Assembly: GCA_020404895.1 (NCBI GenBank) | Contig: JADBWK010000090.1 | Location: 1 to 64,000, forward strand | Origin: Pseudanabaena sp. M085S1SP2A07QC | GTDB taxonomy: Bacteria; Cyanobacteriota; Cyanobacteriia; Pseudanabaenales; Pseudanabaenaceae | Direction: 5' to 3' | DNA length: 64,000 nt | In this document: positions 42,733-47,662 of the stretch, one piece after another | Layout: each line of letters starts with the position of its first letter | Numbering within the stretch: position 1 is the first letter of the stretch | The notes under the pieces: model-generated | Databases searched by the model: none | Seen by the model: the letters and a program-made list of their open reading frames with translations, nothing else | What the model was told of the DNA's origin: nothing | Position numbers and translations under genes: made by a program

Positions 42733-44997
42733 ATGAGAAAGACAGTTGCAAGATTTTGCGCGATCGCATTGATCACGATTTTAATAGTGGTTTCGCTTGG
42801 CGGCTTATACCCTCAGAGTTCGCGAGCCGATGGCAATCCGATCACGATCGCCGTAGCTGCACCTCTTAGTGGTGATGGCGCGAGTGGCGGTCAAGAAATC
42901 GTCGATAGTATCAAGCTATATATTGATGCGACCAATCGCGATGGGGGCATCAATGGTCGTCAGCTTAAATTAAATGTTTTTGACGACAAGGGCAATGCTG
43001 ATGGGGCAACTCAAGTTGCTAACGAAATTTCTAAAAGTGAGGCTCTAGTGGTGTTGGGGCATCGCACTTCTGATGCTTCGATCGCGGCGGGTAACATTTA
43101 CCAAGAACGCAAGTTGCCAGCAATTACAGGTACGGCAAATAATCCTAAAGTTACCACGGATCGCCCTTACTATTTTCGGATAATTTATACTAATCCTGAC
43201 TTGGCAAAAACGCTGTCGCTCTATGCACAGCAGGTATTACAGTTCAAGACGGCTAGTGTAATTTATGACAAAGCCAGCAAAAATGAACAGACCCAATCTG
43301 AAGTAATTAAATCGGCTTTTGAAGCTAATGGTAATGGCAAAATTCAAAAAACTTGGGCGATTGACTCTGAGCCATCTAATCGGAAAGCGTCAGTGCAACA
43401 AATCGTCAATGAAATTGCCGCCGAGACTGATGCAGGAATTTTGTTTTTAACTTTGGGCAAAGAGGATGTTGCTGAAGATTTTTTAGTGGCGCTGAAACAA
43501 AAGGGGCTGAAAAACATCATTTTAGGTGAACAAGCTTTAGCAAGAGAATCTTTTGCAAAGCGTTTTGAAAAATACGCTGAAGAAAAGAAAAGCGCAGGTT
43601 TCTTTACTGATGGCATGTATGTGCCAGCGCCAATCTTATTTGATAGTGCTGGAGCTGATGCCCAAGATTTTCTCACTGCTTATCAAAAAGCCTATAACAA
43701 GACTCCTTCCTATTTAGGAGCTAAGTTTTATGAGGCAGCGATCGCGGCAGTCGATGCAATTCGCAAAGCTAATCCAAAATTAACGACAGCAAGCTTAGAA
43801 AGCGATCGCGAACAGGTGCGAGATGCTTTAGCAAAGCTAAACAATCGTAAGGTCGGGATACGAGGTTTAACGGGTTTGCTATATTTCAATAGCGATCGCA
43901 ATAGCGATCAACCTGTGCGTCTTGCTCAATTTCAAAATTACAAACTGATCTCCGCATCCCAGCAATTTACACCAATTCCTAACCCAGAACGCCTGAATTT
44001 ACCGAAAGAAATCCAAGCTGGAAGCATCGTTCAATCGGGCGATCAATATTTTTGGCGGCAGCGTGTAGTTTACTCAGGCATGGATATCAATAAACTAAAT
44101 CGCATTGATAAATCTACCTTTACCGCCGATTTTTACGTGTGGTTCCGCTATAGCGGCAATGATGAGCCTACGGAGATTCAGTTTCCTGATGCGGTCACCA
44201 ATAGCGTCAACCCCACAGCTCCAGTATTTGATGGCAAAGCCCCAATCAAGGCGCAGGTCGTCAATGGCTTAAACTATCGTCTCTATCGGGTACGCGGTGA
44301 ATTTCGGAATGCCTTTGATTTTCGTGACTATCCCTTTGATTCACAAAGATTAAACTTGCGTTTTGATAATCCCAATCTATCGACTGAGCGGTTGATCTAT
44401 GCGATCGATAAGGTTGGCTTAAAATTACCAAGACCCGAAGCCGAAGAACGTAAACCATTTCAAGGGCTTCAGCTTTGGAATTTTAAAAGTATTACCTATT
44501 TCCAAGACTCATCGCGCAGTACCTCCACTCAAGGCGATCCTGATTTGTTTCAGTCCAATGTGCAGGTCGAATACCCTGGGTTAAGTATACGCATGACGTT
44601 TCAGCGCAAGACCTTAGTATTTCTATCTAAGAATGGTTTACCCCTGATTTTGTTGTCAGGTTTAACCTATTGCTGCTTATTCTTCCCCTATACGATGTTT
44701 GTGCCTCGCACAATGGCTCCTGCATCAGCATTACTATCGGGAATTGTGTTGTTGTTATCTTTTAACAATCAACTGCCTGAAGTTGGCTATACCGTTGTGA
44801 TGGAATATGTGTTTTATGTCTATTTCTGTCTGTGTTTACTACCAATTATCGTCACAGCGATCGGGACGAAGCTAGATAAAGAGGGACATAAAAAAGCCTT
44901 TAAATATTTGAATATTGCGTCTTGGATTCTCTATCCATTGATTGTAATTGTCACATTTGCCACTTTTTTAATTAATTATGGCGATCGCTTAGCATAG
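42733..44997 (+). CDS. type I periplasmic-binding protein fused to a pentameric ligand-gated ion channel (Cys-loop superfamily)
   Basis: signal peptide; ITIAVAAPLSGDGASGGQEIVDSIKLYIDATNRDGGINGRQLKL (LIVBP-like); FDFRDYPFDSQRLNLRF Pro-loop motif; four C-terminal TM helices with M2 VPRTMAPASALLSGIVLLLSFNNQLP; preceded by GAAGG. Confidence 0.9.
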   Translation: MRKTVARFCAIALITILIVVSLGGLYPQSSRADGNPITIAVAAPLSGDGASGGQEIVDSIKLYIDATNRDGGINGRQLKLNVFDDKGNADGATQVANEISKSEALVVLGHRTSDASIAAGNIYQERKLPAITGTANNPKVTTDRPYYFRIIYTNPDLAKTLSLYAQQVLQFKTASVIYDKASKNEQTQSEVIKSAFEANGNGKIQKTWAIDSEPSNRKASVQQIVNEIAAETDAGILFLTLGKEDVAEDFLVALKQKGLKNIILGEQALARESFAKRFEKYAEEKKSAGFFTDGMYVPAPILFDSAGADAQDFLTAYQKAYNKTPSYLGAKFYEAAIAAVDAIRKANPKLTTASLESDREQVRDALAKLNNRKVGIRGLTGLLYFNSDRNSDQPVRLAQFQNYKLISASQQFTPIPNPERLNLPKEIQAGSIVQSGDQYFWRQRVVYSGMDINKLNRIDKSTFTADFYVWFRYSGNDEPTEIQFPDAVTNSVNPTAPVFDGKAPIKAQVVNGLNYRLYRVRGEFRNAFDFRDYPFDSQRLNLRFDNPNLSTERLIYAIDKVGLKLPRPEAEERKPFQGLQLWNFKSITYFQDSSRSTSTQGDPDLFQSNVQVEYPGLSIRMTFQRKTLVFLSKNGLPLILLSGLTYCCLFFPYTMFVPRTMAPASALLSGIVLLLSFNNQLPEVGYTVVMEYVFYVYFCLCLLPIIVTAIGTKLDKEGHKKAFKYLNIASWILYPLIVIVTFATFLINYGDRLA

Positions 44998-45090
44998 AAG
45001 CCAACAGTAAAGTGGTGACGATTTGCGTTGCTATCTTGCTGTTGTTTTAGAAATGTCAAAGCATAGCAACTACAGCAATTTTCGAGCAAA

Positions 45091-46371: not shown

Positions 46372-47662
46372 ACCATGGAAATTTTCGCTATCCCGCATCC
46401 TCGCCATTTTTTTATTGGGCATTTCCTTCACTTTTGCTACCTATATTGGGGCAGGAGCAAACATCGCAACGACTGCTATCTTTGCTCAATCTAATCCTGA
46501 AGCGACAAATAATCCCACAACATCTGCACCTAATCAGTCAGTGGCAAACCCCATAGTTACTGATGCAGCAAAGCCCCCAGCAAACAAAGATGGTGCTGCT
46601 AATCCAACAAAGCCGCCAGTTAAAGATAACGTCAAAAAAACTACTACACCAGACGAAAACCCACTGGAGATAAATAATCTTGTTCCTTTTCCTTCTAATG
46701 TGGCTCTCCCTATAAATGTAGGTGTAGCCTTATTTGTAAATAACATCAGCAAAATCAACGAAGCTAGTAATACCTTTGAGAGTCAGTTTGATTTAAGGTA
46801 TAACTGGAAAGATCCTCGCTTAGCCTTCGATACTGGCGAGATGGGAACAAATCGTTTGGAGTTTGGACAAGAAGCTGCTGTAGCAAAATTAGCCACCATC
46901 TGGAATCCGCAGATTAAAATCACTAACATCATCGAGAAAGATGCGCAAATTGTTCCAGGCTTATTCATTCATTATGATGGTGAAGTGGAGCTAATCCAGC
47001 GTGTCAAGGCGACCTTCGAGACCAAATTAAATTTAGATGCTTTCCCCTTTGACTCCCAGTCTCTGCTCGTAGCTATGTTGTCATCTAAATACAATTCTAA
47101 TCAGATTGCATTGACGCAGGATCAGAATGATCTTAACGAATCAGGACTCGATCCAGACCTCAAAGTTAATGGATGGAAGCCACAGGGAATATCCTTTAAA
47201 ATGACACAGCTACGCGCTTGGAATGGCGCATTTCTCCGTCAGATTGAAGCTCGCGTGGGTATGAAACGTATCCCGAATGCGATTCTAGGCTCGATCTTCA
47301 CGCCATTCTTCTTGACTTTAATCGTACCGACAATCTTTACATTCTTCGCAAATGTAGAATTAGCTCCCCGTCTGGTCGCTTGGAGTGGCTCAATCTTGGC
47401 ATTGGTGGCGCTCACTTTCACATTCTCAGTGCGATACCCTTGGCTCGGCAGCAACAGCCTCGTGTCGCAGATATTCACCGCAGGACATGCCTTTCAGCTT
47501 ATCTCAGTACTCTTATCGATAACTCTGTTTAATCCAGATGTAGCTAAAAAGATGGATCGGTTCATCGTCGCCGAACTCGTCAGCTATCTACGGTGGCTAG
47601 TTCCTGTCGGCTTCTTGGGTGTCTTGATCACTAAGTCACTACTCACAGCTTTTGACTGGTAA
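46364..47662 (+). CDS. pentameric ligand-gated ion channel subunit (Cys-loop superfamily)
   Basis: PINVGVALFVNNISKINEASNTFESQFDLRYNWKDPRL; LNLDAFPFDSQSL; four TMs with M2 APRLVAWSGSILALVALTFTFSVRYP. Confidence 0.9.
   Translation: MRRPWKFSLSRILAIFLLGISFTFATYIGAGANIATTAIFAQSNPEATNNPTTSAPNQSVANPIVTDAAKPPANKDGAANPTKPPVKDNVKKTTTPDENPLEINNLVPFPSNVALPINVGVALFVNNISKINEASNTFESQFDLRYNWKDPRLAFDTGEMGTNRLEFGQEAAVAKLATIWNPQIKITNIIEKDAQIVPGLFIHYDGEVELIQRVKATFETKLNLDAFPFDSQSLLVAMLSSKYNSNQIALTQDQNDLNESGLDPDLKVNGWKPQGISFKMTQLRAWNGAFLRQIEARVGMKRIPNAILGSIFTPFFLTLIVPTIFTFFANVELAPRLVAWSGSILALVALTFTFSVRYPWLGSNSLVSQIFTAGHAFQLISVLLSITLFNPDVAKKMDRFIVAELVSYLRWLVPVGFLGVLITKSLLTAFDW

What the first reader, a model, noticed from the sequence alone, without database searches (positions are those of the whole stretch)
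42733..47662. Three-gene sensory cluster: PBP-pLGIC fusion, Cache-HAMP sensor without output, and a second pLGIC subunit
Seen: two different pentameric ligand-gated ion channel subunits sit on the same strand within 5 kb, with a double-Cache-like + HAMP membrane protein between them. The Cache protein ends shortly after HAMP, with no methyl-accepting, kinase, cyclase or other output domain. Knowledge: GLIC and ELIC are bacterial pLGICs, and some bacterial pLGIC fusions to solute-binding domains have been noted before; a paired-subunit locus with an output-less Cache sensor is not something I recall being described. Inference: this may be a heteromeric receptor whose ligand inputs (PBP-I and Cache) converge on a channel instead of a phosphorelay.
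Basis: partly seen in the sequence, partly recalled or inferred. Interest (0 to 1): 0.92.

Follow-up and report, generated by a model that had tools for sequence, protein, structure and literature searches.

The report
Cache sensor paired with bacterial channel
In a Pseudanabaena cyanobacterium, a sensor protein that has lost its usual signalling tail is encoded in lock-step with a relative of nerve-cell receptor channels; the same pairing recurs across many bacterial phyla, so the sensor probably works by controlling the channel, while a neighbouring sensor-channel fusion is a separate, independently inherited gene.

Summary
Gene 1 (42733-44997) is a PBP-I solute-binding domain fused to a pLGIC. 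Gene 2 (45211-46371) is dCache_3-TM-HAMP with no output domain. Gene 3 (46364-47662) is a GLIC-like pLGIC. Genes 2 and 3 are a real unit. In 79 named bacterial loci found with the Cache profile, all 28 with an output-less Cache (about ten phylum-level groups) have a same-strand pLGIC beside it, usually with a start codon overlapping the Cache stop by 4 or 8 bases. None of the 47 long relatives does; the ten I sampled are chemoreceptors (MCPs). The linked Caches form one 100/100 clade, and their tree mirrors the pLGIC tree (r 0.97). Six lineages have lost HAMP as well. Gene 1 is separable: a sister genome has an exact empty site with the 2-3 pair elsewhere, and gene 1 stands alone in many Pseudanabaena. 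Best explanation: an MCP-derived Cache whose output is now a partner channel, probably as an auxiliary subunit. Physical contact and gating are inferred. PBP-pLGIC fusions and one Cache-pLGIC operon were described in 2004; the strict, multi-phylum output swap I did not find described.

The parts
42504..42577 (+). tRNA-His (gtg), conserved neighbour upstream of gene 1
   Evidence: ARAGORN; present upstream of gene 1 in all Pseudanabaena gene-1 loci pulled
42603..42645 (+). terminator-like hairpin after tRNA-His, before gene 1
   Evidence: pattern scan, 20-pair stem; the scan total is near shuffle expectation
42733..44997 (+). gene 1: signal peptide, PBP-I (Peripla_BP_6, residues 36-401), pLGIC ectodomain (about 432-625) and four-helix transmembrane domain (627-753)
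45211..46371 (+). gene 2: TM1, dCache_3 (39-287), TM2, HAMP-like (321-366), no output domain
   Evidence: relatives
46364..47662 (+). gene 3: signal peptide, disordered linker (31-104), GLIC-like pLGIC ectodomain and M1-M4 (304-431)
46364..46371 (+). 8-base overlap ATGCGTAG of gene 3 start and gene 2 stop, with a GGAG motif just upstream
   Evidence: sequence; same -8 or -4 overlap in most related loci
45046..47693 (+). conserved Cache-pLGIC block found at another place in two sister genomes
   Evidence: 94-95% nucleotide identity to L170 and L172
45008..47675 (+). stretch missing at the equivalent site of a sister genome (empty site)
   Evidence: L171 matches window 37530-45007 and then 47676-47813 without the stretch between

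Best explanation
Genes 2 and 3 form a two-component receptor channel. Gene 2 is a membrane-anchored dCache_3 sensor related to chemoreceptors that lacks their cytoplasmic signalling domain. Gene 3 is a Pro-loop pentameric ligand-gated channel. The likely working is that a small molecule binds the outer Cache lobe, and the Cache protein, sitting beside the channel as an auxiliary subunit, passes the change through its membrane-proximal lobe and second transmembrane helix to the channel, whose ion flux is the output. Shown: domain identity, adjacency in every complete locus examined, translational overlap, common ancestry with MCP-type receptors, and matched evolution of the two partners. Inferred: physical contact, direction of gating, ligand, ion selectivity, and that the ancestor was MCP-like rather than the reverse. 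Gene 1 is a second, independent receptor channel in which the sensor (PBP-I, LivJ-like fold) is fused to the channel; in Pseudanabaena it is often, but not necessarily, next door.
For: Of 79 named loci fetched with the Cache profile, all 28 with a complete short output-less Cache flank a same-strand pLGIC; none of the 47 with long open frames does. All ten long ones sampled carry MCPsignal. Linked Caches form one clade at 100/100 in a tree of 81. Cache and pLGIC tree distances correlate at r 0.969 (n 28) and 0.964 after removing near-copies; the best of 5000 permutations is 0.62. In 22 of 26 Cache-then-channel loci a channel start codon overlaps the Cache stop by 4 or 8 bases. Order is reversed in Sericytochromatia, and Chlamydiae has one channel with two Caches, so the pairing survives rearrangement. 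Six linked Caches keep only 12-27 residues after TM2, so HAMP is dispensable. The outer-lobe motif (F107, P111, A112, R117, D128, R133, E175, G177) is shared with MCP-type relatives, while R218, T229, G262, F285 and TM2 G312 are specific to channel-linked Caches. A second paralogous pair in five Pseudanabaena genomes keeps the same adjacency. In two genomes both pair genes are fragmentary while gene 1 is intact.
Against: No physical interaction, current or ligand has been measured, and no complex could be modelled. Cache proteins usually dimerise, which does not match a pentamer in an obvious way. Adjacency could reflect co-regulation of two sensors of the same cue. The 79 loci are the best matches of a pattern scan, not a full census; four loci (L069, L099, L129, L139) are cut by or close to contig ends and uninformative. 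Mirror trees also correlate for any two genes that travel together, so the correlation alone does not show contact.
Confidence: 0.62

Rival explanations
1. Co-transcribed but physically separate sensors: Cache and pLGIC respond to the same or related cues, or Cache binds and concentrates ligand for the channel's own site, without touching or gating the channel (the cooperation suggested by Tasneem et al.).
For: Operon-like linkage is shown; contact is not. PMC549065 proposes pre-concentration of ligand by associated Cache or PBP domains.
Against: A membrane-anchored Cache with two helices and no output is an odd pure binder. Clade-specific conservation in its membrane-proximal half and TM2 points to a coupling role.
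Confidence: 0.22
2. The Cache-HAMP protein still signals through the cytoplasm, by HAMP pairing with a separate MCP or kinase, and the channel is a co-regulated neighbour.
For: HAMP is retained in the window protein and 50-70 residues follow TM2 in most linked relatives.
Against: HAMP is gone in six linked lineages; HAMP scores are below Pfam's cut-off in the window protein and in L084. The only conserved partner found is the channel.
Confidence: 0.08
3. One reading: one heteromeric receptor made of both pLGIC subunits plus Cache, with PBP-I and Cache inputs converging.
For: Three-gene order conserved in 10 of 12 Pseudanabaena genomes that have this pair, counting two with a decaying pair.
Against: Empty site and relocated pair in a sister genome; gene 1 alone in at least seven Pseudanabaena genomes and in other genera lacking the Cache family; about 16% identity between the pLGICs; no PBP-pLGIC found in the flanks of the pair in the other phyla.
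Confidence: 0.06

Closest known systems
Rhodopseudomonas pLGIC operon with stand-alone Cache (Tasneem et al. 2004, PMC549065)
   Same: A pLGIC gene predicted to be co-transcribed with a separate Cache protein
   Different: One case, without a wider survey of the Cache family; here a specific dCache_3 clade with strict, multi-phylum linkage and MCP kinship. Whether the Rhodopseudomonas Cache belongs to this clade was not checked
PBP-I-pLGIC fusions of alphaproteobacteria (Tasneem et al. 2004)
   Same: Same architecture as gene 1
   Different: Cyanobacterial family; the channel half is missed by Pfam and source names call it an ABC transporter substrate-binding protein
GLIC (Gloeobacter proton-gated channel)
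   Same: Fold, Pro-loop without cysteines, four helices
   Different: About 20% identity; M2 entrance E-L-A-P-R instead of GLIC's Y-E-A-N; Cache partner
DeCLIC
   Same: Prokaryotic pLGIC with extra periplasmic modulatory domains
   Different: Its extra domains are fused beta jelly-roll lobes, not a separate Cache protein
alpha2delta subunit of animal voltage-gated calcium channels
   Same: Cache-containing auxiliary subunit of a channel (parallel noted in PMC549065)
   Different: Different channel family and Cache type; analogy only
dCache_3-HAMP methyl-accepting chemotaxis proteins
   Same: Same sensor family and shared outer-lobe motif
   Different: They carry an MCP signalling domain and no pLGIC neighbour

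Membership tests
pLGIC (gene 3) | Neur_chan_LBD beta-sandwich ectodomain | tested here: met
   PF02931 E 2e-21 over curated cut-off; fold match to GLIC
pLGIC (gene 3) | four transmembrane helices M1-M4 after the ectodomain | tested here: met
   helices 304-327, 333-357, 366-386, 399-431 in the model
pLGIC (gene 3) | Pro-loop (FPFD), cysteines not required in prokaryotes | tested here: met
   FPFD at 227-230, nearly invariant
pLGIC (gene 3) | pentameric assembly and ion conduction | not testable with these tools
   no multimer modelling or electrophysiology
pLGIC (gene 1 C-terminal half) | pLGIC ectodomain plus four helices | tested here: met
   profile-profile probability 98.3 over 449-746; four helices in model; PDB profile hits to GABA-A chains 527-759, E 1.9e-13. 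A PF02931 match was not obtained and the PDB fold search listed only PBP-type matches in its top 50
Type I periplasmic binding protein (gene 1 N-terminal half) | Peripla_BP fold with export signal | tested here: met
   PF13458 E 9e-37; fold match LivJ TM 0.88; signal peptide judged from sequence only
dCache sensor (gene 2) | periplasmic double Cache between two transmembrane helices | tested here: met
   PF14827 E 1.7e-27; helices judged from sequence and alignment, structure not modelled
methyl-accepting chemotaxis protein (gene 2) | MCPsignal output domain | tested here: not met
   absent; protein ends 20 residues after HAMP
Cache-pLGIC two-gene unit | output-less Cache always adjacent to a pLGIC | tested here: met
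   28 of 28 complete short-Cache loci, none of 47 long ones
anion-type or cation-type channel | charged ring at the M2 inner end | tested here: inconclusive
   gene 3 E-L-A-P-R and gene 1 M-F-V-P-R lack an acidic residue next to the 0' arginine; no measurement

The most novel reading that the evidence does not exclude
A widespread bacterial class of receptor channels in which a chemoreceptor-derived dCache protein is an obligate auxiliary subunit that senses the ligand and gates a pLGIC from outside its classical binding site, possibly an anion channel: an evolutionary swap of chemotaxis output for ion flux.
Probability: 0.5. Interest if true: 0.82.

Novelty: new variant of a known kind. Interest (0 to 1): 0.64.

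Why it matters
What bacterial pLGICs sense and do in the cell is largely open. Here a sensor family of known type comes with the channel across many phyla, which names a candidate input, and MCP relatives with the same outer-lobe motif offer a way to find the ligand. If the Cache gates the channel, it would be a bacterial counterpart to Cache-bearing auxiliary subunits of animal channels, and a case where a chemoreceptor changed its output from phosphorelay to ion flux.

Tried and rejected
The three-gene heteromer was rejected on synteny and distribution. An intrinsic terminator between genes 1 and 2 was sought; only a weak candidate near expectation was found, so co-transcription of gene 1 with the pair stays open. 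A plasmid search with the Rhizobium Cache gave only weak or partial relatives. Three literature searches for later Cache-pLGIC work found nothing relevant. LivF (40061-40879, opposite strand) was considered as partner of the PBP-I domain; it follows the same locus in some sister genomes but lies in an opposite-strand group and was not pursued. L139, an apparent short Cache without pLGIC, sits in an MCP clade next to a contig end and is treated as uninformative. The PDB fold search with the whole gene 1 model returned only PBP-type matches in its top 50, so the channel half rests on sequence profiles and the model's strands and helices. Three alignment calls failed on wrong strands and were repeated (then 24-26).

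Full report
What is there. The window lies in a Pseudanabaena genome (names of near-identical proteins). Gene 1 (42733-44997) has an export signal, a type I periplasmic binding domain and a channel half that Pfam does not recognise. PDB searches, profile-profile comparison with gene 3's family and an AlphaFold2 model agree that this half is a pLGIC. Gene 2 (45211-46371) is a dCache_3 protein with a weak HAMP and nothing after it. Gene 3 (46364-47662) is a clear GLIC-like pLGIC. Gene 3 begins inside gene 2; gene 1 is 213 bases away and follows a tRNA-His.

Genes 2 and 3 belong together. Within 26 genomes of the genus the Cache and its channel are found side by side, including a second paralogous pair at about 43% identity in five genomes and decaying pairs in two. 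I then scanned the collection of 85,488 named species genomes with a Cache profile and kept the best 79 loci. Profile searches of all open frames split them cleanly: 28 loci with a short Cache, all with a pLGIC beside it; 47 loci with a long open frame (599 aa or more), none with a pLGIC; four cut by, or close to, contig ends. Ten of the long proteins were scanned and all carry MCPsignal; five of the neighbouring channels were scanned and all carry Neur_chan_LBD. The linked loci come from Cyanobacteria, Sericytochromatia, Methylococcales and Burkholderiales, Alphaproteobacteria, Magnetococcales, Myxococcota, Verrucomicrobia, Chlamydiae, Riflebacteria and Leptospirales; many are metagenome assemblies, so single placements should be read with care.

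Evolution. In a tree of 81 Cache proteins the linked ones form one clade (100/100), which also holds one contig-truncated sequence; the MCP types fall outside it. Tree distances of Cache and channel correlate at 0.97. In 22 of 26 loci with the Cache first, a channel start codon overlaps the Cache stop by 4 or 8 bases; in Sericytochromatia the order is swapped, and in Chlamydiae one channel is followed by two Caches. Six linked lineages have only 12-27 residues after the second helix, so even HAMP is lost. Residues of the outer Cache lobe are shared with MCP relatives; several in the inner lobe and TM2 are specific to the channel-linked clade. I read this as: same input, new output. The tree is unrooted, so the direction (MCP-like ancestor losing its output) is the likelier reading, not a proof.

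Gene 1 is a neighbour, not a part. The tRNA-His plus PBP-pLGIC locus is conserved across Pseudanabaena with or without the pair. In a sister genome the window aligns from 37530 to 45007 and resumes at 47676, an exact empty site, while the pair (window 45046-47693) sits elsewhere in that genome and in a second one. In a sample of 392 cyanobacterial genomes the Cache family occurs only in Pseudanabaena and two deep-branching lineages, while full-length PBP-pLGIC fusions occur in other families. The three-gene order, present in 10 of 12 Pseudanabaena genomes with this pair, may still bring co-regulation.

Mechanism. Most likely the Cache binds a small molecule and passes the change to the channel as an auxiliary subunit. 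This last step is inference. The M2 entrance in gene 3 (E-L-A-P-R) and gene 1 (M-F-V-P-R) lacks the acidic residue next to the 0' arginine that marks cation channels, and recalls the P-A-R of anion channels (alignments; general knowledge of the family); selectivity is untested.

Comparison with the known. Tasneem et al. 2004 (PMC549065) described PBP-I-pLGIC fusions, Cache/MCP-N-pLGIC fusions and one operon with a stand-alone Cache, and suggested cooperation. A 2016 inventory (PMC4795631) mentions neither Cache nor PBP in its text. I found no later work on the pairing in the held library, which lacks most subscription journals. What is new here is the scale, strictness and MCP kinship of the pairing, and the separation of gene 1 from it.

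Noticed in passing
L185:900-4463 (-) and 4550-8101 (-), unlabelled cyanobacterial genome G145: Two tandem genes of about 1185 aa. The one scanned (L146) is PBP-I, then pLGIC, then a C-terminal type II solute-binding domain (SBP_bac_1, E 1e-33) after the fourth helix: a channel between two different binding proteins. The second copy was sized but not scanned.
   Followed up: partly
window 44979-44995 and 47661-47690: HIP1-type GCGATCGC palindromes lie at both borders of the block missing from the sister genome, a possible route for gain or loss of the cassette.
   Followed up: no
window 47729-50914 (-): An MmeI-like type IIG restriction-modification protein that carries a DUF559 nuclease-like domain (860-964) set in Pro/Arg-rich, repeat-like sequence.
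   Followed up: partly
G022:C1:438383-440543 (L005, L031): Cache gene of pair A is split by about 1 kb of other DNA while its pLGIC stays intact; the genome has an intact second pair.
   Followed up: no
L079:5881-7067: Leptospirales Cache gene is split between two frames just upstream of an intact pLGIC; sequencing error or decay.
   Followed up: no
public protein names for the gene 1 family: Source databases call the gene 1 family an ABC transporter or branched-chain amino acid substrate-binding protein; its channel half goes unannotated.
   Followed up: yes
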